Shown here: piece by piece, positions 2,152-34,020 of the stretch
Layout: every line of letters begins with the position of its first letter
How positions within the stretch are numbered: the first letter of the stretch is position 1
Assembly (NCBI GenBank): GCA_031263565.1
Contig: JAISFR010000072.1
Span: 1-47,952, forward strand
DNA: 47,952 nucleotides
DNA from: Candidatus Adiutrix sp.
GTDB lineage: Bacteria > Desulfobacterota > Desulfarculia > Adiutricales > Adiutricaceae
Direction of reading: 5' to 3'
Program-made: the position numbers and the translations under genes
Notes under the pieces: generated by a model
The model's database searches: none
Told to the model about the DNA's origin: nothing
What the model saw: only the letters and a program-made list of their open reading frames with translations

Positions 2152-4131
2152 TCAGGAAACCCGGATGCCGCTGGGCATGGGGGCGGCGGTGGTCAACAGG
2201 GAAAGAATCTCGCCGTCTCCTTCGCGTCGGGCCGCGGCCAGGACCATGCCTTCGGAAGTGATGCCCATCAGCTTGGCCGGGGCCAGGTTGGCTACGATGA
2301 TCACCGAGCGGCCGGTGATCTCTTCGGGCGTGTAGTGCTTGCCCATGCCGGCCACGATGATCCGCTCACTGTCGCCGACCTTGATGGTCAGCTTCAGAAG
2401 CTTGTCGCTCTTAGGCACCCGTTCGGCGGCGACCACTTCGGCCACGCGCAGATCCAGGCGCTTGAATTCCTCAAAACTGATCGACTCGGCCGGCGGAATG
2501 TCGCTCTTGGCCGCCTTTTTGGGCACGGCTTCACCTTTGGCCGTTTCCGTTCCGGCCGATTGGTCCCTGGCGCTTTCGGCCTTGGTGGCCGCTTTTTCTC
2601 CGCCGAACTCCACCCGGGGGAAGAGGGGCTCACCGGGGGCCAGACGGCGGCCGGGCGCGTCCAGCAGCTCATAGATCCGCCCCAGGTCCAGGCTCATATC
2701 TTCGGGTTTCAGGCCCAGGCGACGCCAGATTTCCTCCCCGGTTTTGGGCATGACCGGCCAGATCAGGGCCCCGACCACCCCCAGCCCGACGATCAGGCGG
2801 CGCAGCACCCCCTGCAGATGAGGCTTTTTACCGGGATCACGGGCCAGGGCCCAGGGGGCCTGACTGTCGATGTATTTGTTCAGCCGGCTGATCAGTTCCC
2901 AAGCCTTGACCAGGCCCAGATGCGGGGTCATGTTGCGGAAATGGCCCTGGTAGGAGCCGATGATTTCATCGGTCACATAGGCGTTCCACTGATCCTGGTC
3001 GGCCGGCGGGGTTCCGCCTTCCGGGATGACCCCGCCGCCGAATTTTCCCAGCATGGTCAGGCTGCGCTGCCAGAGGTTGCCGAGGTCGTTGGCCAGGTCG
3101 GCGTTGTAGCGGCCCACCAGACCGTCTTCCACGAATTCGCTGTCCAGGCCGAAGACCATGTCCCGGGCCAGGAAGTAACGGAAGGCGTCCACCCCGTAGG
3201 TGTCGGCCAGATTCAGGGCGTCGACCACGTTGCCCACGCTTTTGCCCATCTTGGCCTGCCCCATCTGCCAATAGCCGTGCACGTTCAGATGCTGATAAAG
3301 GGGCAGCCCGGCGCTCTGAAGCATGGTCGGCCAGAAAATGGCGTGGGGCTTTAAGATGTCCTTGGCGATGAAGTGCTGGGCGGCCGGCCAGTAGCGCCCG
3401 AAGAGTTCGCCGTCGGGCCAGCCCAGAACGCTGATGTAGCTGATCAGGGCGTCGAACCAGACATAGGTCACGAACTTGTCGTCAAAGGGCAGGTCAATGC
3501 CCCAGGTCAGGCGGGATTTGGGCCGGCTGATGCACAGATCATCCAGGGGATCCCGCATCAGACCCAGCACTTCGTTGCGGTAGCGCTCGGGCCGGATAAA
3601 GTCCGGATTTTTTCTGATATGGTCGATCAGCCAGTCCTGATAATTGCTCATGCGGAAAAAATAATTTTCCTCGGAAATGTACCGGGGCCTGGTCCGGTGC
3701 TGAGGGCAGAAACCGTCCTCCAGTTCTTTTTCGGTATAGAAACGTTCGCAGCCGAAGCAGTAATAGCCGCCGTAATCGCCGTAGTAGAGGTCGCCTTTTT
3801 GCTTGACCCGGTCCAGGAATTTGGCGACCGCCTTTTTGTGCCGCTCTTCGGTGGTGCGGATGAAGTCGCTGTTCCGGATCTCCAGTTTGGGCCAGGTGGC
3901 CCGGAAGAGTCCGCTGATCACGCCGGCATACTGGGCCGGGCTCTGGCCGTTCTGTTCGGCGGCCTGAACGATCTTGTCGCCGTGCTCGTCAGTGCCGGTG
4001 ATGAAGCGGGCGTCTTCGCCGCAGAGCTGATGGAAGCGGGTCACCGCATCGGTGATGATGGTGGTGTAGGCGTGGCCCAAATGCGGCTTGGCATTGACGT
4101 AATAGATAGGCGTGGTGGCATAAAAACGCAT
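2152..4131 (-). CDS. metG: Methionyl-tRNA synthetase
   Basis: A 659-residue class I synthetase that charges tRNA(Met) with methionine. The HIGH signature is HLGH at residues 17-20 and the KMSKS signature is KMGKS at 294-298. A zinc knuckle in the connective peptide is built from Cys125, Cys128, Cys142 and His145. After the anticodon-binding helical domain comes a low-complexity linker rich in Ala, Lys and Glu, then a C-terminal EMAP/Trbp111-like tRNA-binding and dimerisation domain from about residue 555 (FKRLDLRVAEV). The start follows a GGGAAG ribosome site. The kinase gene ends only 18 bases upstream, so the two are probably co-transcribed, and trkA follows after a hairpin. Confidence 0.97.
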   Translation of the reverse strand: MRFYATTPIYYVNAKPHLGHAYTTIITDAVTRFHQLCGEDARFITGTDEHGDKIVQAAEQNGQSPAQYAGVISGLFRATWPKLEIRNSDFIRTTEERHKKAVAKFLDRVKQKGDLYYGDYGGYYCFGCERFYTEKELEDGFCPQHRTRPRYISEENYFFRMSNYQDWLIDHIRKNPDFIRPERYRNEVLGLMRDPLDDLCISRPKSRLTWGIDLPFDDKFVTYVWFDALISYISVLGWPDGELFGRYWPAAQHFIAKDILKPHAIFWPTMLQSAGLPLYQHLNVHGYWQMGQAKMGKSVGNVVDALNLADTYGVDAFRYFLARDMVFGLDSEFVEDGLVGRYNADLANDLGNLWQRSLTMLGKFGGGVIPEGGTPPADQDQWNAYVTDEIIGSYQGHFRNMTPHLGLVKAWELISRLNKYIDSQAPWALARDPGKKPHLQGVLRRLIVGLGVVGALIWPVMPKTGEEIWRRLGLKPEDMSLDLGRIYELLDAPGRRLAPGEPLFPRVEFGGEKAATKAESARDQSAGTETAKGEAVPKKAAKSDIPPAESISFEEFKRLDLRVAEVVAAERVPKSDKLLKLTIKVGDSERIIVAGMGKHYTPEEITGRSVIIVANLAPAKLMGITSEGMVLAAARREGDGEILSLLTTAAPMPSGIRVS

Positions 4132-4149
4132 TTAATCTTCCCTTTCGGG

Positions 4150-7100
4150 CTATCTGGGCTTTTTCCGCAGCCACTTGGCCAGGGTGGAAAAAAGTTCCTG
4201 AAGGTTGATGGGTTTGTTGATGTGATCGTTCATGCCGGCCTTAAGGCTCATTTCCCGGTCGCCGCTCATGGCGTGAGCGGTCATGGCCACGATGGGCAGT
4301 TTGTCGAAGCCTGGCAGACGGCGGATTTCGTGCGTGGCCTCGATGCCGTCCATCTCCGGCATCTGAATATCCATCAAAACCAGGTCATAGGGTTCGGCCT
4401 GGACCATTTCCAGGGCCTGGCGGCCGTTGTTGGCGATCTCGACCACCAGGCCGGCGTTCTTCAGAATGCGGCTGGCTACCAGTTGGTTGACCTCGTTGTC
4501 TTCGGCCAGAAGGATGCGGGCGCCGGCATATTCCTTGACCACGGACATTTCGTGGGCTTTTTTGAGCCTGGATTCCTTTTCCGGCAGACCCCGGCCGAAG
4601 ATGTCCACCAGTACGTTGAGCATGGTGGAGGGCGACAGGGGTTTGGTCAGGACGTTGCGGATGCCGCTCTTCCTGGCCAGGTCCAGCACGTCGTCGCGGT
4701 TGTAGGCCGTGGCCATGATGATGACCGGGAGTTTATTGGGCGACACGATCTGGTGGATGCGGTCGGAGGTTTCGATGCCGTCCATGTCCGGCATTTTCCA
4801 GTCGATGAAGACCAGGTCGAAATGCTGGCCCTGTTTTTCCCTCTCGCTCAACTTCTCCAGGGCTTCGTGCCCGCTGGCGGCCGTAACCACGGTAAAGCCC
4901 AGAGTCCGCAGAAAGTCGCTTAAAATCTCCAGGGCCACCACATTGTCGTCCACCGCCAGGGCCGCCAGGCCGCTGAAGTCTTTGCGCTGGCTGATATAGC
5001 GCCGCTCGGAGTGGTGCAGGCCGAACCGGGCCGTAAAGGCGAAGACGCTGCCCCGCCCGGCCTGGCTTTCGCACCAGATTTCTCCGCCCATCATTTCCAC
5101 CAGGCGCTTGGAAATGGCCAGCCCCAGGCCGGTGCCGCCGTAGCGGCGGCTGATGGAGGCCTCGGCCTGGCTGAAGGCCGCGAAGAGGTTGCGGGTCTGT
5201 TCGGGGGTCAGGCCGATGCCGGTGTCTTCCACCATGAATTTCAGGGTAGCCGAGCCCTGGTCTTCCCGCACGGTCGCCACTTTCAGGGTCACCTGGCCCT
5301 GATCGGTGAATTTGACGGCATTGCTGGTCAGGTTGGACAGCACCTGGGCCAGGCGGACCTGATCGCCCACCAGACCGGCCGGGGTGTTGGGGGGCACCAC
5401 GAGCAGCAATTCCAGGCCTTTTTCGTGGGCCCGGGTGGAGATCTGATCCACCACCTGCTGCAGCACCTCGTCGAGCTGAAACTCCTCGGCCTCCATTTCG
5501 AGCTTGCCGGCCTCAATTTTGGAGAAATCCAGAATGTCGTTGATGATCCGCAAAAGGGTCTTGGCCGAGCTTTCGGTTTTTTGGAGATATTCCCGCTGGA
5601 CCTCGTTCATCTCGGTCTGGAGGGCCAGATGGATGAGGCCTAAAATGGCGTTCATGGGTGTGCGGATCTCGTGGCTCATGTTGGCCAGGAACTCGCTTTT
5701 GGCCCGGGTGCTCTCCTCGGCCGCGTCCCGGGCCTCTTTCAGTTCCCGGGCCCGCTGCTTGAGTTCGGTGACGTCCATCAGCCAGCTCATCACCCCGGTC
5801 TCCCGGTAGTAATCGGTGCGGAAAGCGTTCAGGAGCATGGACCGGATCTCTCCGTCGGCCCGGCGGATCTTCACCGGCCGCCAGTTGACGAAACTCTTCC
5901 GGTCCAGTTCCAGGGCCAGATCTTCCCAGGCGCCGTCTTTGGGGTAGATGTCGGTGATCCGGTCTTCTTCCCGAAGGCCGGTGAAGTTGCGGGCGAAAGG
6001 GGTGATGAACTTGATGACCCCGCCAACGGTGATGGTGAAGCAGATGGGCGTGGAGTCCATTATCTTGCGGAGGAGCTGGCGCTCCATGTCCCGCTCGGCC
6101 TGGGTCCGCTTCAGTTCGCGCAGGTCCCGGGTGTAGCCGGCCACTATGTAGCTGTCGCGCCGGGCTACGCGCACCAGGGTTATCTCGCAGGGCACGGGGG
6201 TGCCGTCGAGCTTCCGGTGCAGCCATTCAAAGACGTAGCGCCCGTCGCGGAAGGCCTGGAGGATTTTTTCCTGGGCCAGTTCGTTCGAGGGCCGGCCGTT
6301 GGGCTGGAAGTCGGGCGAGAGTTTGGCAAAATTGTCCAAATAGGCCTGTTTGTCCGGTAGGTCGAAGAGGATGGCCGCGGCCTGGTTGCAGTCGATGTTG
6401 TTGAAGTTCTCGTCCCAGAAGTTGCAGGCCAGGGGCATGGCGTCGAGCATGATGCGGGTGCGTTCGTCGGCTTCCCTTATTTCAGTGACGTCCCTCAGAA
6501 TTTCGATGCGGCCGATGTCCTGCCCGGCCTCGTCTCTAAGCACGGAATTGGAGCCGTGAAACAGGCGGCCGCTGCCGTGCAGATAGCGGGTGAAGGTGCT
6601 GCTTTCGCCATAGGGGCTGCTGACAAAGTCGCTGTCGATGAAGTTGTCTCTTTCGGCCTCGTTGGGGCGGCCGAGATATTCCCTGACCGGCCGGCCCCCG
6701 TGGACTTCGGCCGCGGGCTGATTGAGATAGGCCCAGCGGCCCTGCCGGTCGAAAACCCCCACCGGCAGCGGCAGACTGTCGAGCACCGCCTTGTACCAGA
6801 CCATCTGGGAGGTGATGAAGGCCAGGGCCTGATTGAGATAGTCGGTGAAAAGACCGGTCTGGTCGGCCTGGTCCGGCTCCGCCCCAAGGGTTTTCAGAAC
6901 ATCCCGGCGGCCGGAGCTTTCAATCAGGTCATGAATCTGACGGCGCAGCCGGGTCAGAAGGTCCGTCTTTTCGGCCATCTGGGCTTCCAGGTCGGCCCGG
7001 GCCCGGCGTTCGCCGCTGATGTCCTGGGAAAAGCCCAGGAAACCGGTCAGGCGTCCTTTCTCAGTCCTTTGCCCGGCATCGGCAAAGGTTCTGAGCCAGA

Positions 7101-27015: not shown

Positions 27016-27252
<237 letters not shown>

Positions 27253-27253
27253 T

Positions 27254-29923
27254 ATGCCGAACGTGAAGCCAGGCGGCTTGGCCCCCGCGCCCGGGGATGA
27301 AGACGTCCCGTATTTTTCCGAACGCCTGAAAGCCAGGCTGCGCAAAGCTCCGGCCATGCGCGGCATCTTCATTGAAGCCCCGGTCGGCTACGGCAAGACG
27401 ACCGTGGCCGCCGGGTACCTGCGGAGCGCCCTGCCCAAAGGAAGCCTTGTGGTCTGGCACCACTGCCGGCCAGATAGCCCCCCAGCCCTATGGCGCAACC
27501 TGGGCCGCGCCCTGCAAGCCATTGACTCGAAAACCGGGGCGGAGCTTCTGCGTCTCGGTCCTCCTGACGAAGACAGCCTGCGCGATGCGGGCCGGCTGCT
27601 GCGGGGCCTGGTCGGCGCGGCCCCCACCTGGCTGGTGCTGGACGATTTTCACCATCTGGCGGCGCTGGCGCCCGCCGCCGTCTGGCAAGCCCTGCTGGAA
27701 CACGAATGCCCGCATCTGGCTACGGTGCTGATTTCCCGGCCCCTGCCCGAAAATCCCCTGCCCCGCGGAAAAGCCGGCTTTCTGTATCTGGGGGTTGACG
27801 ATCTGCGCCTGACGCCGGAGGAATCCAGGGACTATGCGGCCCAAGCGGGCGCCGCGCTCAGCGGGCAAGAAGCCCGGGAACTGCATCGCCGCGCCGAAGG
27901 CTGGATGTTCGCCCTCTTTCTGCATGTGCGGCACTACCGGGAGAAGAAAAGCTTTGCCCCGGCCTCCGATTTTGAAGGCCTGCTCAGGGCTGAAATCTGG
28001 GACCGGCTGGACGAAGCCGGCCGGGACTTGCTCCAGCGGCTTTCCCCGTTTGAAGCCTTCAGCGCCATCCAGGCCTCCCAATTGCTCCATGTGCCGGAAC
28101 CGCCCGCCGCTCTCCTGGCGGCCTTGGCCTACACGGCTATCCTGCGCTTTGACGACGCCTCCGGCCTGTATTATCCCCACAGCCTCCTTCTGGAATATAC
28201 CCGGAAAACCGTCAATGAGCTGCCCAAAACAGCGCAACGGGAAATTCTCCAGGCCGCCGGCGACTGGTGCGCCGCGAACGGGGAGCGGAAGAAGGCCATT
28301 GCCTGGTATTACCAACTGGAGAATTTTGAAAAGATTCTGGCCCTCGATCTCTCCGGCCTTCCGGACAACCGCCTGCTGGACCTGCCGGATGCCGCCCCCG
28401 GCCGCCCTGACGGTCCGGGCGCGCCCGCCCGGGCCAACGGCGCTGATCCGCCGTCCACTGAGATCTACGCGGACGCCCTGCGGAAAATTGCGGCCCGCTG
28501 TACCCGCGCCATGAAAATCCGGCATCCCCTGTCCGCGATCCAACTGGCCTTTGAATTTTTCGGCCAGGGTCTGTCTGAGGAATATGCCGCCCTGTGCGGG
28601 GAAATGGCCGGACTGGTGGAAACGGAGGTGCCGGAGCGGGAACGGGACTACCTGCGCGGGGAGCTTCTGCTGATGGAAGCCTTCAGGCGCTATAACGACA
28701 TAGCGGAAATGGGCGAACGCATACAAAGGGCCTCGGAACTCACGGGCGGCCAAACCTCGCTTGTGCGCCCGGACAATTCCTGGACCTTCGGCAACGCCTC
28801 GGTCCTCTTCATGTACCACCGCGAAGCCGGGCGCCTGGACGCGGAACTGGCCGACCTGGAACGCTGCTGCCCCCCCTATACCGCCATGAGCCGGGGCCAC
28901 GGCAGCGGCGGCCCGGCCCTCATGCGGGCGGAAGCCCTGCTTAACCGGGGAGAAGCGGAAAAGGCGGAAATTTTCGGCCACCGGGCGCGGCATGAAGCAG
29001 CCGGGCACGGGCAGACCAGCCTCAGCCTCGGGGTGGAACTGTTTTTCGGCCGGCTGGCGGTCCTGCGGGGGGACGGGATGGCCTGTGCCCGGGCGCTCGA
29101 CTCCCTGGCCTCTCTGGCGGAGGAATACCCGCAAAAGTCCAACCGGATGGAGGCGGATATGGCCCGGTCCTTTCTGGCGGGCTTGCTGCACCGCCCGCCG
29201 GAGGCCGCCGCCTGGCTGCGTGACGGACCGCCAGAGGCCTTCAGCAGGCGGCTGTTCACGCAGGCGATCCCCTTCGCGCAGGTCTGCCGCGCCCGCTGCC
29301 TGCTGCTGGACCGTAAGCCGGAAGTTCTGCTCGGCGAAAGCGCCGCCGCGCTCGGCCTGGCCCGGGCTCTGCATTCCACGCCCGCCCTGGTCTACGGCCA
29401 TCTCCACGCGGCGGCCGCCCTGGCTATGCTGGGCGAAGGCCGGGAAGCCGCGTCCGAGTTACGCCAGGCTCTGGATTTGGCCCTGCCGGACGCGCTCTAC
29501 CTGCCCTTGGCGGAACAGTATGACCTGATCGGGCTGCTGCTCACCAAAGCCTTGTCCGGCAAGAAACAGGCTGAAGCTCTGACCAGGGTCGAGGCCTTGG
29601 CGGAACAGATGCGGGCGGGCCGCCAAACCGCGGTCAAAGAAATGCTGGCCCGGGAACAGTTTGACGGCGGGAACGGCCTGAATGAACAAGCCGGGAAAGC
29701 CGATCTGAAAAAGTTTCATTCCTTTGCCGCCCGCTATGATCTGACCGAAAAAGAAACTGAAGTGCTCTCTTATATTCTCCGTAAATTGAGCATTAAAGAA
29801 ATGGCTGAAAACATGGGCATATCCAACCGGGGCGTGGAGAAGCACGTAACCGGGATCAAGGAAAAAACCCGGATCGAACGCCGGCGGCATCTGCCCCGAC
29901 TGTATGCCGACTGGAAGATGTAG
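27254..29923 (+). CDS. MalT/LAL-type LuxR-family ATP-dependent transcriptional regulator
   Basis: 889 residues. The N-terminal ATPase of the STAND/LAL group has Walker A APVGYGKTT (near residues 42-50) and Walker B LVLDDFHHL near residues 127-135. A winged-helix and helical sensor region rich in tetratricopeptide-like helices follows. The C-terminal LuxR helix-turn-helix (residues 829-889) reads LTEKETEVLSYILRKLSIKEMAENMGISNRGVEKHV. Such proteins are ligand- and ATP-activated DNA binders. The ATG at 27254 is chosen because MalT-like proteins begin their homology about 15-20 residues before the P-loop; the frame is open upstream only through a TTG in a terminator. The autotransporter lies immediately downstream and is the natural candidate target. 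Confidence 0.9.
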   Translation: MPNVKPGGLAPAPGDEDVPYFSERLKARLRKAPAMRGIFIEAPVGYGKTTVAAGYLRSALPKGSLVVWHHCRPDSPPALWRNLGRALQAIDSKTGAELLRLGPPDEDSLRDAGRLLRGLVGAAPTWLVLDDFHHLAALAPAAVWQALLEHECPHLATVLISRPLPENPLPRGKAGFLYLGVDDLRLTPEESRDYAAQAGAALSGQEARELHRRAEGWMFALFLHVRHYREKKSFAPASDFEGLLRAEIWDRLDEAGRDLLQRLSPFEAFSAIQASQLLHVPEPPAALLAALAYTAILRFDDASGLYYPHSLLLEYTRKTVNELPKTAQREILQAAGDWCAANGERKKAIAWYYQLENFEKILALDLSGLPDNRLLDLPDAAPGRPDGPGAPARANGADPPSTEIYADALRKIAARCTRAMKIRHPLSAIQLAFEFFGQGLSEEYAALCGEMAGLVETEVPERERDYLRGELLLMEAFRRYNDIAEMGERIQRASELTGGQTSLVRPDNSWTFGNASVLFMYHREAGRLDAELADLERCCPPYTAMSRGHGSGGPALMRAEALLNRGEAEKAEIFGHRARHEAAGHGQTSLSLGVELFFGRLAVLRGDGMACARALDSLASLAEEYPQKSNRMEADMARSFLAGLLHRPPEAAAWLRDGPPEAFSRRLFTQAIPFAQVCRARCLLLDRKPEVLLGESAAALGLARALHSTPALVYGHLHAAAALAMLGEGREAASELRQALDLALPDALYLPLAEQYDLIGLLLTKALSGKKQAEALTRVEALAEQMRAGRQTAVKEMLAREQFDGGNGLNEQAGKADLKKFHSFAARYDLTEKETEVLSYILRKLSIKEMAENMGISNRGVEKHVTGIKEKTRIERRRHLPRLYADWKM

Positions 29924-30286
29924 TTTCCGCCCTTCGCTTCTGAAAAAAATCGGTTGCGGCTTGGGAGACAAAATTACAATAATTTAAACAAATTGACCGG
30001 CAGCCCCGCTGTTTTTTCCAAAAATTGACCTCAAACCCGCACCTTTCCCGCACTGTTCAATTTTTCCACGCCTGATATAATTACGTAATTTTCCAGCATT
30101 TTTCCATGCAGGAGTTGTGTTACGATATGGCGCAGGCTAAACCCCCAGACCTTTATGGTCCTCGTATTTTCAAGGCGGCTTTGTGCGCGGAGCAAGCGTC
30201 TTTACGCTCGTCTGCCGTACCGGCAAAGGGAAGACGCATTGCATTGTGAACCATATATCCGTGACCGCATTCAGAAAGGAGAACCC
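29924..30286 (+). promoter_or_regulatory. Intergenic region with autotransporter promoter elements
   Basis: 363 bases with no gene. TATAAT at 30076-30081 overlaps a perfect palindrome, AATTACGTAATT (30079-30090), suggesting an operator on the -10 box. No good -35 element is seen, which fits an activator-dependent promoter. TACGTAATT recurs in the regulator's own promoter region at about 26993-27001. A strong ribosome site, AAGGAG (30275-30280), precedes the autotransporter ATG. Confidence 0.5.
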
Positions 30287-31369
30287 ATGAACCATACCCT
30301 GTCCCGCACCGGTTTGTATTTTTTCGCGGCCTGCTTTCTGGCCTGGAGTCTCTTTTCGCCGGGCGGAGCAATGGCCGCGAACACCACGATCAACGACAAC
30401 ACCAGTGGTCCATATACTGGCCTCTATGGCAACGACGGAACCGCGACCACCCCTACTGCTGACACATATGCCAGCGGCAACATGCTTGTTCTCGGCAACG
30501 GTTACACCGGCCCGACCATTACCGATACTTCTGTCGTGACAGTTGCCGGCGGGTATGCTCCCGGCAACTCCAACGGCGACTCCAGCAGCAACACGCTGAC
30601 CATCAACAGCGGGACCTCTTTTACTGCTACCGGCTTTACCAATATTTATGGCGGGAGGGTGGCAGCAGGCAGCGGGAACGCCGCTGGCAATACCGTTACT
30701 ATGGGGGATTTCACACAAGGGAGTGGCAATGTTGTTGTTTATGGCGGACGCGCTCACGGCAGCGGAAATGCTTCGACCAATGGAGTTACCATCGGTTCCG
30801 GCAACACAAATGATTTTTCTGGGATTTACGGTGCTTATGCCAATAGCGGAAATGCCATAAGCAATACTGTAACCATCAACGGCGGCGGACAAATCGCCTT
30901 TGTTAATGGCGGTTATTCCGCTGACGGCAATGCCGGAGGCTCTGGAGTCGGCAACGTCGTCAACATCAGCGGCGGCAACGCAAATATCCTGAACGGTATT
31001 GGGGGAGGAAACAGCAACAGCGGTAGCAGTGGCTCCGCCAGCTACAACGAGGTGAATATCGGGAGCGGCTATACAGGCACAATCGGCGGCAATGTCCACG
31101 GCGGGTGGGTAAGCGGCGGCAGCGGCAACGCGGAGCATAATAGCGTCACCATCGCCGGAGGGACTCTCCAAGGCGGCGCTGCCGTCATAGGCGGCCACTC
31201 CACCAATGGCGCCGCCACCGACAACACCGTCAGCATCAGCGGCGGCAGGGTAGCCGGCGATATTCGCGGCGGGAGCACAACTACAGGCTCCGCTACCGGC
31301 AACACCGTCAGCATCACCACCACCGGCGAAACCTATCTGAACATCTACGGCGGGTATGGGGGGGGGTAG
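30287..31369 (+). CDS. Autotransporter, N-terminal part (signal peptide and passenger), out of frame at a G9 tract
   Basis: 360 codons from the ATG with a strong AAGGAG site to a TAG right after a G9 run. A Sec signal peptide (cleavage after AMAA) is followed by a passenger of imperfect repeats of about 25-30 residues. Each combines an IYGG-type turn, a GSGNA segment and an NTVTI strand, as in right-handed beta-helix adhesins. Sequence up to the G tract is IYGGYGGG. With eight Gs the frame would continue as SGDLFTGNTLNL, which is the expected next part of the repeat, into the 31356-33326 frame. As sequenced, the product is a truncated, secreted passenger without a translocator. I read this as a phase-OFF allele, though a homopolymer sequencing error is possible. 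Confidence 0.88.
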   Translation: MNHTLSRTGLYFFAACFLAWSLFSPGGAMAANTTINDNTSGPYTGLYGNDGTATTPTADTYASGNMLVLGNGYTGPTITDTSVVTVAGGYAPGNSNGDSSSNTLTINSGTSFTATGFTNIYGGRVAAGSGNAAGNTVTMGDFTQGSGNVVVYGGRAHGSGNASTNGVTIGSGNTNDFSGIYGAYANSGNAISNTVTINGGGQIAFVNGGYSADGNAGGSGVGNVVNISGGNANILNGIGGGNSNSGSSGSASYNEVNIGSGYTGTIGGNVHGGWVSGGSGNAEHNSVTIAGGTLQGGAAVIGGHSTNGAATDNTVSISGGRVAGDIRGGSTTTGSATGNTVSITTTGETYLNIYGGYGGG

Positions 31370-33326
31370 CGGCGACCTGTTCACCGGCAACACCCTGAAT
31401 CTCGCCGCCGGGAATGCAGTCAGTTCCGTGCACAATACGGCTGTCCTCAACTTTACTTCCGGCGGAAGCGCGGGTATCAACACTCTGGACACCACAGCCA
31501 CCGGAGCCGTAGGCAGCCCCAAAATGACCCTCAACACCTATACTCACGCCGTCGATTTCGGCGGGGTCATCAACGGCACGGGCGGCATCGACAAAACCGG
31601 CGCAGGCACCCTGACTCTGAGCGGAACAAACACTTACAGCGGCGGAACCACCGTGAGCGCCGGAACCCTGGCCGGGAATATCGCTTCCGGCACGGACCTT
31701 ACCGTGGCAAGCGGCGCGACCTATGACGGAAGCGGTGCGGCCCGTTCCGTGGGCGCTCTTGCCGATGCGGGTTCAATCATCAACACCCACGGCCTGACCG
31801 CGCAAAGCGGCTCTTTCAGTGGCGTCATTTCAGGCGCGGGCGGCCTGACCAAGACCGGAGCCGGAACCCTGACCCTGAGCGGCACGAATACCTTCACCGG
31901 ATCTCTCAGCATTGACGCGGGCGGTCTGACCCTCGGCGCGGGCGGCTCTTTGGCTACGAACTCTCTGTCTCTGGCCACGAACACAGTCTTTGACTATTCC
32001 GCCGCTTCATACGCCTTCCATAACCTGACCGTGCGCGGCCTGAATACGCACATCGTCCCCAGCGCGGCGGGCGCGGATTTCAGCGGCGCGAACCTTGCCT
32101 ATATTGTGCCGCAGACAGCCGCGAACGGAGCCACCCTGCTTACCGTACAAGGTGGGGCGACCATTGACGCGGCCACCGCCGTCAGCCTCGCTTACGCTTC
32201 GGGCAGGCCAAACATCAACGCGGGCGAAGGTTTCACCTTACTGAACGCTACAACTCTGACGGACAGCGGCTTTACGCAGCTTACCGTACAGACCCCGAGT
32301 GGCGATATCTACACCCTGAATGTTTCCGGCACGCAGCTTCTGGCCGTGCTGCAACAGCTTTCCCCCACCGGCCCGGCCTATGAGCGCCTCAAAGCCTATG
32401 CCGAAAGCCGGGCCGCGTCCCTGGCCTTCGCCAACCAGGGCCTTGATTTTATCCTGAACCGGGGTTTCGGTTCCGCCCTGGCCACGACAGCGGGACCGGG
32501 TTTCCGCTTCGGCAGTTTCGGGGGCCTGGGCGGCGGCTGGTCGCGCTATACCACAGGTTCACATGTGGACGTTTCCGGCCTGTCGCTGTTGGCGGGTCTG
32601 GCCCTCGGTAATGACCTAGCCCCCGGACGCCTGACCCTCGGGGCCTTCTTCGAGGGCGGATGGGGCAATTACAACTCCCATAACAGCTTCAGCAACGCGG
32701 CCTCCGTGGACGGCAAGGGGGACAGTTCCTACTACGGCGGCGGCATCCTGGGCCGCTACGACCTGACGGAAGGCGCTCTCTCCGGCCTGTATTTCGACGC
32801 TTCGGCCCGCCTGGGCCGGACGGAAACGGATTTCCGCAGCGGCGACATCCGGTACAACGGCTGGAACGCCAATTTTGAAAGCTCATCCCTTTACTATGGC
32901 CTGCACGGCGGGTTTGGCTATGTCTGGAGCTTTACGGACCAGGCTGCCCTCGACCTGTCCGCGAAACTGCTCTGGACACGGCAGAAAGGCGACAGCCTGA
33001 CCGTGTACCAGGACCGCCTGCGCTTCAAGGACGCCGATTCCCTGCGTACCCGCCTGGGCGGGCGCTTCGCCTACTCCGTCAACGACTACGTCAGCCCCTA
33101 TCTCGGCGCGTATTGGGAACACGAGTTCGACGGCCAACAGCGTATCGCGGTGAACGGCCAGCGCCTTTCTTCCCCGTCCCTCAAGGGCGATACGGGCCTG
33201 GCTGAACTCGGCCTCTCCCTTAAGCCTTCGCCAAGCCTGCCCCTGTCCTTTGATTTGGGGGTGCAGGGCTATGTGGGGACAAGGGAAGGCGTGGCGGGGA
33301 GCTTGCAGATCAAGTTGGAATTTTAG
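31356..33326 (+). CDS. Autotransporter, C-terminal part (passenger end, PATR repeats and beta-barrel)
   Basis: The frame is open from the G tract to 33326; the apparent ATG inside the tract is not a real start. Two passenger-associated transport repeats (GIDKTGAGTLTLSGTNTYSGG and GLTKTGAGTLTLSGTNTFTGS) lie near 31590-31910. A linker helix (YERLKAYAESRAASLAFANQ) leads to a classical type Va barrel of about 270 residues ending in KLEF, with the C-terminal Phe required for Bam-dependent insertion. Joined to 30287-31366 by loss of one G (or gain of two), it makes a full autotransporter of about 1,012 residues. Surface display or adhesion is the expected role; the ligand is unknown. Confidence 0.9.
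   Translation: MGGGSGDLFTGNTLNLAAGNAVSSVHNTAVLNFTSGGSAGINTLDTTATGAVGSPKMTLNTYTHAVDFGGVINGTGGIDKTGAGTLTLSGTNTYSGGTTVSAGTLAGNIASGTDLTVASGATYDGSGAARSVGALADAGSIINTHGLTAQSGSFSGVISGAGGLTKTGAGTLTLSGTNTFTGSLSIDAGGLTLGAGGSLATNSLSLATNTVFDYSAASYAFHNLTVRGLNTHIVPSAAGADFSGANLAYIVPQTAANGATLLTVQGGATIDAATAVSLAYASGRPNINAGEGFTLLNATTLTDSGFTQLTVQTPSGDIYTLNVSGTQLLAVLQQLSPTGPAYERLKAYAESRAASLAFANQGLDFILNRGFGSALATTAGPGFRFGSFGGLGGGWSRYTTGSHVDVSGLSLLAGLALGNDLAPGRLTLGAFFEGGWGNYNSHNSFSNAASVDGKGDSSYYGGGILGRYDLTEGALSGLYFDASARLGRTETDFRSGDIRYNGWNANFESSSLYYGLHGGFGYVWSFTDQAALDLSAKLLWTRQKGDSLTVYQDRLRFKDADSLRTRLGGRFAYSVNDYVSPYLGAYWEHEFDGQQRIAVNGQRLSSPSLKGDTGLAELGLSLKPSPSLPLSFDLGVQGYVGTREGVAGSLQIKLEF
31358..31366 (+). repeat. Homopolymeric G9 tract at the autotransporter frame break
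   Basis: Nine consecutive Gs, with the TAG stop directly after them in the frame of the signal peptide. Eight or eleven Gs would join the two halves in frame. Poly-G tracts of 8-12 are the classic contingency-locus element in Campylobacter, Helicobacter and Neisseria surface genes. Confidence 0.95.
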
Positions 33327-33362: not shown

Positions 33363-33743
33363 CTACAGAAATATCTTGTACGAAACGTTGTATTTTTTGC
33401 CTGCGCGTTTGGCCATTTCAAGGGAAATTGAACGGGCGCCGTTTTCCATTGCTGAAATGTGGTTTTGCCTTATGCCAAGGTGTTCCGCCATTTCTTTTTG
33501 GGTCAGGCCCTCACGGAGCCTTATACCCTTGAGTCTGCTGCCCGGACGCGAATCAGGAAAGACTTCCTCAAGGGAATACAGTTCTTCGCCTTCATCGTTG
33601 ACCGGCCTTATCTCATGCCCGGCCAGAGATAACACTATCTTCAGGGCTTCAGCCATCCGCAGGGATTCAACCACCGGCACAGTTACAGACAAGTCGATTT
33701 TAACTGATTCGCCGGTAGTCTGCATGCTCATGTGGGCCGACAT
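33363..33743 (-). CDS. XRE/HigA-type antitoxin
   Basis: 126 residues. An N-terminal segment (KIDLSVTVPVVESLRMAEALKIVLSL), probably toxin-binding, is followed by a Cro/C1 helix-turn-helix (RLREGLTQKEMAEHLGIRQNHISAMENGARSIS) that binds the operon's own operator. The ATG at 33743 has a perfect GGAGG site 6 bases upstream. The gene overlaps the toxin gene by 44 bases, so it is translated from the same mRNA in the toxin-first order typical of higBA. It converges on the autotransporter gene, 36 bases away. Confidence 0.88.
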   Translation of the reverse strand: MSAHMSMQTTGESVKIDLSVTVPVVESLRMAEALKIVLSLAGHEIRPVNDEGEELYSLEEVFPDSRPGSRLKGIRLREGLTQKEMAEHLGIRQNHISAMENGARSISLEMAKRAGKKYNVSYKIFL

Positions 33744-34020
33744 AGCGTACCTCCATAATTTGCACATCGTTATCGACGACTACCCAGACCACAACGTAAA
33801 CAGGGCGGGATTTATTCAGGTGACAATGACGCATATCCGTTTTCTTGCCCTGGCCTTTTATATTGCCGCAGTGCGGCCAGTTCCGCCGCTCCGGCCCTTC
33901 CGTCTTGAGTTCATAAGTCAAGGCATCCAGGATGGGCGAGATGTCATCAGGCAATAGTTCCTTTTGCTTCCGGGCCTTGTTGGAAAATTTGATTTCCCAC
34001 GTTTTGTTCTTGTCGCTCAT
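33700..34020 (-). CDS. RelE/HigB-type toxin
   Basis: 106 residues, with a RelE/ParE fold layout: WEIKFSNKARKQKELLPDDISPILDALTYEL, then a basic patch around GNIKGQGKKTDMRHCHLNKSRPVYVVVW, and a terminal strand VQIMEVRYVGPHEHADYRR. It resembles cytotoxic mRNA interferase-like toxins of type II systems, with the final His and Arg-rich segment as the likely catalytic end. It precedes and overlaps the antitoxin gene. The ribosome site (AAGG at about 10 bases) is weak. Such modules often mark accessory islands; here it flanks the phase-variable autotransporter. Confidence 0.85.
   Translation of the reverse strand: MSDKNKTWEIKFSNKARKQKELLPDDISPILDALTYELKTEGPERRNWPHCGNIKGQGKKTDMRHCHLNKSRPVYVVVWVVVDNDVQIMEVRYVGPHEHADYRRIS

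What the first reader, a model, noticed from the sequence alone, without database searches (positions are those of the whole stretch)
31356..31369. G9 tract splits an autotransporter exactly where one G fewer restores the protein: candidate phase-variable switch, OFF state
The signal-peptide/passenger frame runs into a G9 tract followed by TAG. With eight Gs it continues in frame through PATR repeats and a complete beta-barrel to 33326 (about 1,012 residues). The joined sequence also completes the passenger repeat pattern (IYGG..GSG..GNT). Homopolymer G tracts of this length are the standard contingency device in surface genes of other taxa; I know of few described in this kind of organism.
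Basis: partly seen in the sequence, partly recalled or inferred. Interest (0 to 1): 0.85.

Follow-up and report, generated by a model that had tools for sequence, protein, structure and literature searches.

The report
Autotransporter gene broken at G9 tract
A gut bacterium's surface-protein gene is cut in two at a run of nine Gs, exactly where a DNA-copying slip would switch it off; this is a credible but unproven on/off switch of a kind already known in other bacteria, and a run of this length is no commoner in this genome than chance predicts.

Summary
A G9 run at 31358-31366, followed by TAG, separates a signal peptide plus passenger (30287-31369) from PATR repeats plus a complete barrel (31356-33326). 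The two halves are one gene. A homologue (G046:C50) reads straight through this site with no G run. Passenger repeats are spaced in multiples of 3 except the single interval spanning the tract (88 nt). The barrel folds confidently into 12 strands (pLDDT 91), keeps every residue invariant in 17 relatives, and shows no second lesion.

Slippage at the tract very probably broke the frame. But G>=9 runs occur in this 62% GC genome about as often as a Markov model predicts (23 seen, about 20 expected). A G run of 8 or more appears in this gene in 14% of synonymous shuffles. MutS and MutL are present, and no homologue compared has the tract. No reads or second strain were available to show length variation. 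Bordetella bapC (G11, frame-shifted, polymorphic) is a precise precedent, so proof of variation would make this a new member of a known kind. A stronger poly-G candidate lies elsewhere: a G15 run splitting a phage tail-fibre gene on contig C24.

The parts
30275..30281 (+). Shine-Dalgarno-like AAAGGAG, 5 nt before the ATG
   Evidence: sequence
30287..31369 (+). upstream ORF: signal peptide (MNHTLSRTGLYFFAACFLAWSLFSPGGAMA-A by inspection) and Gly-rich passenger with IYGG..GSG..GNTV repeats; stops at TAG just after the tract
   Evidence: 55-60% identical to the passenger of G046:C50
31358..31366 (+). G9 tract, site of the frame change
31367..31369 (+). TAG stop of the upstream frame
31356..33326 (+). 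downstream ORF in the other frame: rest of passenger, PATR repeats, linker, barrel; ends ...KLEF with C-terminal Phe. No signal peptide of its own.
   Evidence: PF12951 PATR E=1.2e-17; TIGR02601 E=1.7e-20 and TIGR01414 barrel E=8.7e-9
31593..31673 (+). best PATR repeat (residues 80-106 of the downstream ORF)
32334..33323 (+). translocator: pore helix (model residues 20-51) and 12-stranded beta barrel
   Evidence: AlphaFold2 model of alignment A1, mean pLDDT 91.1, pTM 0.85; Foldseek to AIDA-I 4mee, EspP 3slj, BrkA 3qq2, NalP 1uyn
27167..29923 (+). neighbour upstream: large LuxR/GerE-type regulator with AAA ATPase region, same strand (possible regulator; not tested)
   Evidence: PF00196 E=4e-7
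33363..33767 (-). neighbour downstream: small HTH (XRE-type) protein, convergent; bounds the gene on the 3' side
   Evidence: PF01381 E=2.4e-12

Best explanation
This is one classical (type Va) autotransporter gene, caught in an out-of-frame allele produced by slipped-strand mispairing in a G run inside the passenger-coding part. In this allele translation starts normally, makes the signal peptide and about 330 residues of passenger, and stops at TAG right after the tract. No barrel is made, so the fragment cannot be displayed. A further one-base slip in the same run would put the barrel back in frame, so the gene would behave like a slippage-driven ON/OFF locus. The run itself most likely arose by chance in a Gly-rich, G+C-rich coding sequence, as a mutation-prone spot. 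Shown: one gene, split at the tract, intact on both sides. Inferred: slippage as the cause. Not shown: reversibility, switching rate, expression, or benefit.
For: Frame change confined to 31341-31369. Uninterrupted homologue across the site. Repeat spacing off by one only at the tract. Barrel intact: pLDDT 91 12-strand fold matching solved autotransporters, 35 of 35 invariant and 76 of 77 near-invariant columns kept, among the best of 18 sequences. The assembly reads other G runs in frame, such as G10 in dnaJ and G9 in a 1,673-codon ORF, so G runs are not misassembled as a rule. Literature precedent: bapC of Bordetella pertussis, a G11 tract that shifts the frame of an autotransporter, where a one-base contraction restores it and G10/G12 alleles coexist in cultures (PMC1891110).
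Against: Only one sequence of this allele exists in the data, with no reads and no second strain. The tract frequency is background. MutS and MutL are present with open frames, which should damp slippage in a G9 run. No homologue compared here has a long G run at this place.
Confidence: 0.5

Rival explanations
1. A true, selected contingency locus: the tract is maintained and hypermutable, and ON/OFF switching of this surface protein is under selection (strict phase variation). It differs from the best explanation only in claiming that the tract itself has been selected.
For: Surface protein, the usual target class; barrel undecayed; the same genome and family hold long poly-G runs in phage tail-tip genes, G15 split and G14 in frame, so long G runs do persist here; known analogues NalP/MspA (PMC3723659), capD (PMC7168839), bapC (PMC1891110).
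Against: G9 at chance frequency; 14% of synonymous shuffles give a G8 or longer run in the gene; tract not seen in homologues; mismatch repair present. A review warns against calling such accidental tracts phase variation (siaD 7C, PMC11868660).
Confidence: 0.2
2. One-way loss: a slippage frameshift in a dispensable member of a large autotransporter family, on its way to becoming a pseudogene.
For: The genome has about a dozen autotransporter barrels; another one, C15, is broken by a 17-bp tandem duplication; the homologue G046:C50 is itself frame-broken in its barrel with no homopolymer. In Campylobacter, inactivation of capC autotransporters was attributed to decay rather than to poly-G tracts (PMC7168839).
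Against: No second lesion in over 1,000 codons and full conservation of barrel residues, so the event is recent at most; the lesion sits on the one hypermutable spot of the gene.
Confidence: 0.2
3. Assembly or consensus error: the real tract has a different length and the gene is intact.
For: The genome is a 145-contig draft with no reads available here; homopolymers are the classic error site, and many relatives' long G runs lie at contig ends.
Against: Other G9-G10 runs in coding genes of the same assembly are in frame; runs of 8 and 9 are usually read correctly by short reads (own knowledge).
Confidence: 0.12
4. Expression despite the frameshift, through transcriptional or ribosomal slippage on the G run (a leaky or programmed frameshift).
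For: A run of nine identical bases can allow slippage; the downstream frame is fully open.
Against: The homologue has no run at all at this site; bacterial RNA polymerase slippage is best known on A/T runs (own knowledge).
Confidence: 0.05
5. Two separate genes: a secreted short passenger-like protein and a barrel protein starting at ATG 31356.
For: An ATG overlaps the tract.
Against: The downstream ORF would lack a signal peptide and could not reach the outer membrane; the homologue has both halves in one frame.
Confidence: 0.02

Closest known systems
bapC of Bordetella pertussis (PMC1891110)
   Same: autotransporter; G tract inside the coding sequence; annotated allele out of frame; one-base contraction restores the frame
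   Different: bapC has several tract-length alleles shown to coexist in cultures; variation here is untested. No sequence relation of passengers claimed.
NalP and MspA of Neisseria meningitidis (PMC3723659)
   Same: autotransporters with an in-gene homopolymer that sets ON/OFF; the NalP barrel (1uyn) is among the fold matches of this barrel
   Different: poly-C tracts of 6-15 with strain-to-strain variation and immunoblot proof for NalP; here one allele only
Campylobacter capD autotransporters (PMC7168839)
   Same: poly-G tract in the ORF of an autotransporter; the paper also reports decay of autotransporter genes
   Different: tract position conserved through the genus there; here the nearest homologue lacks it
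Passenger-associated-transport-repeat autotransporters (PF12951 / TIGR02601 / TIGR01414)
   Same: PATR repeats and barrel domain both matched
   Different: the passenger part before the tract matches no Pfam or NCBIfam family

Membership tests
classical (type Va) autotransporter | N-terminal signal peptide | tested here: met
   by inspection of residues 1-30, conserved in the homologue G046:C50; no signal-peptide program was run
classical (type Va) autotransporter | C-terminal 12-strand barrel with pore helix and terminal aromatic residue | tested here: met
   AlphaFold2 pLDDT 91, 12 strands, helix 20-51, ends ...LEF; Foldseek to AIDA-I, EspP, EstA, BrkA, NalP; TIGR01414
classical (type Va) autotransporter | signal peptide, passenger and barrel in one polypeptide | tested here: not met
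   not in this allele: the frame changes at the G9 tract. The homologue keeps both halves in one frame across this site, so the gene, not this allele, belongs to the family
simple-sequence-repeat phase-variable locus | homopolymer inside the reading frame whose length sets the frame | tested here: met
   frame change confined to 31341-31369 around G9
simple-sequence-repeat phase-variable locus | tract longer or commoner than expected by chance | tested here: not met
   23 G>=9 runs against 19.7 expected; P = 0.14 for a G>=8 run in synonymous shuffles
simple-sequence-repeat phase-variable locus | tract conserved in position or variable in length among relatives | tested here: inconclusive
   one homologue in the class, without a G run; no second strain of the species held
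simple-sequence-repeat phase-variable locus | reversible switching in both directions | not testable with these tools
   needs reads or cultures
simple-sequence-repeat phase-variable locus | switching rate well above basal mutation | not testable with these tools
   needs cultures; MutS and MutL present
pseudogene | additional disabling mutations or loss of conserved residues | tested here: not met
   no further stops; 35/35 invariant and 76/77 near-invariant barrel columns kept

The most novel reading that the evidence does not exclude
Uncultured, probably termite-gut deltaproteobacteria use poly-G slippage as a contingency system, switching autotransporters (this locus) and their prophage tail tips (G15 in G000:C24, G14 in G010:C78), in a group where I found no such switch described in the literature I could search.
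Probability: 0.15. Interest if true: 0.65.

Novelty: new member of a known kind. Interest (0 to 1): 0.35.

Why it matters
If the tract varies, it would extend slippage-driven switching of surface proteins from well-studied pathogens (Neisseria, Campylobacter, Bordetella) to uncultured gut symbionts, and the question could be answered directly from existing metagenome reads. If it does not vary, the case shows how a G+C-rich genome throws up look-alike switches by chance, and why tract statistics and read counts should come before the label.

Tried and rejected
Looked for the junction DNA in viral contigs: none. Looked for relatives of the C24 tail fibre in viral contigs: none. Searched 63 genomes of the class for the passenger: only G046 besides the genome itself. 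Considered the 23 G>=9 runs of the genome as a possible phasome: most lie on the antisense side of long ORFs, in short GC-rich ORFs or between genes, and the total matches chance, so rejected as a genome-wide phasome. Long G runs in relatives are often at contig ends and were not used as evidence. Codon-position differences against G046 were too weak to judge selection. No sigma-70 promoter or terminator signal above shuffled background near the gene.

Full report
What was checked. The window is contig C54 of a 2.97-Mb draft genome in 145 contigs, 94.6% complete. Named relatives of the downstream protein come from MAGs labelled Deltaproteobacteria bacterium or Desulfovibrio and one labelled Burkholderiaceae.

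One gene, split at the tract. The upstream ORF (ATG 30287, good ribosome-binding site, signal peptide) stops at TAG 31367-31369. The downstream frame is open from 31341 and ends at the stop codon 33324-33326. The frame change is thus confined to 29 bases that contain the G run. The nearest full-length homologue, G046:C50 (another family of the same class), covers residues 4-357 of the passenger at 55-60% identity and continues in the same frame past the tract position, with a few unrelated residues (AETEIYAAAPG) where the window has the Gly-rich junction, and without any long G run. Independently, the 29-nt repeats in the passenger are spaced by multiples of three except for the one spacing (88 nt) that spans the tract.

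The downstream half is sound. It matches PATR repeats and the TIGR01414 barrel, although not the Pfam PF03797 barrel model. An AlphaFold2 model from 18 aligned relatives has mean pLDDT 91 with a pore helix and twelve long strands. Its best fold matches are solved autotransporter units: AIDA-I, EspP, EstA, BrkA, NalP. By sequence profile, only BrkA is found. The window's barrel keeps all 35 columns that are invariant in the other 17 sequences and 76 of 77 near-invariant ones, better than most of the relatives. There is no sign of decay apart from the frame change.

Is the tract special? Not by frequency. The genome has 85 G runs of at least 8, 23 of at least 9, 7 of at least 10 and 3 of at least 11, both strands counted. 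A second-order Markov model from a 106-kb sample of the same genome (62% GC) predicts 83.6, 19.7, 4.7 and 1.1. Shuffling synonymous codons of this gene gives a G run of 8 or more somewhere in 14% of 20,000 shuffles. Some other G runs lie in frame inside intact genes, such as a G10 in dnaJ, which also argues that the assembly handles such runs correctly. Mismatch repair proteins MutS and MutL are encoded with open frames.

Other broken autotransporters. In the same genome the autotransporter of C15 is split by an exact 17-bp tandem duplication, which shifts the frame. The homologue in G046 has a frame break in its barrel at a place without a homopolymer. So loss of individual members of this large family does occur without G tracts, which favours caution.

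A stronger poly-G case in passing. On contig C24 a G15 run lies between a tail-fibre-like ORF (PHROG tail fiber, E=4.5e-5) and a Gly-rich tip ORF in another frame that has no start codon near the tract. A homologous tip gene in G010:C78 has a G14 run at a corresponding place and an open frame. A G15 run is far beyond chance in this genome. This pair looks more like a slippage switch than the G9 tract does; it was followed only this far.

How it most likely works. Slippage at the G run has put the gene out of frame; the product of this allele would be a truncated, unanchored passenger. Another slip would bring the barrel back. The literature gives close analogues: bapC in Bordetella pertussis (PMC1891110), NalP and MspA in Neisseria (PMC3723659), capD in Campylobacter (PMC7168839). 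A recent review insists on reversibility and a minimal rate before the term phase variation is used, and cites a 7C tract in siaD as an accidental mutation-prone tract (PMC11868660). On the data here, this locus meets the anatomical criterion, fails the tract-enrichment test, and cannot be tested for reversibility or rate. Searches for phase variation in Desulfovibrio, Deltaproteobacteria or sulfate-reducing bacteria found no such report in the open-access library.

Verdict. Observation confirmed; interpretation partly supported. A candidate new member of a known kind, of moderate interest unless reads show variation.

Noticed in passing
L123 = G000:C24; G15 tract at C24:5850-5864 (minus strand): A G15 run splits a phage tail-fibre-like gene from a Gly-rich tip ORF in another frame with no start codon near the tract; a homologous tip gene in G010:C78 (L127:2227-3036) has a G14 run at a corresponding place (L127:2313-2326) with an open frame. 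Candidate poly-G switch of phage receptor-binding tips.
   Followed up: partly
L027 (G000:C15), around 1440-1480: Another autotransporter of the same genome is frame-broken by an exact 17-bp tandem duplication.
   Followed up: partly
L069 (G046:C50), around 3583-3620: The nearest homologue of the window autotransporter has a frame break in its barrel with no homopolymer; the rest of the barrel continues in another frame.
   Followed up: partly
L122 (G003:C1:1718500-1727500), G29 at about L122:4515-4543: A G29 run interrupts a putative lipoprotein gene (3662-4555) just upstream of a VgrG-like gene (4840-7035) in a near-complete genome of the same genus; the frame after the run continues as a separate short ORF.
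   Followed up: partly
relatives G012, G019, G024, G027, G030 and others: Some genomes of the family have dozens of windows of G11 or longer, many at contig ends, which may be sequencing or assembly artefacts.
   Followed up: no
window 33363-33767 (minus) and 33700-34020 (minus): Small XRE-type HTH protein overlapping a short ORF on the same strand: arranged like a toxin-antitoxin pair beside the autotransporter.
   Followed up: no
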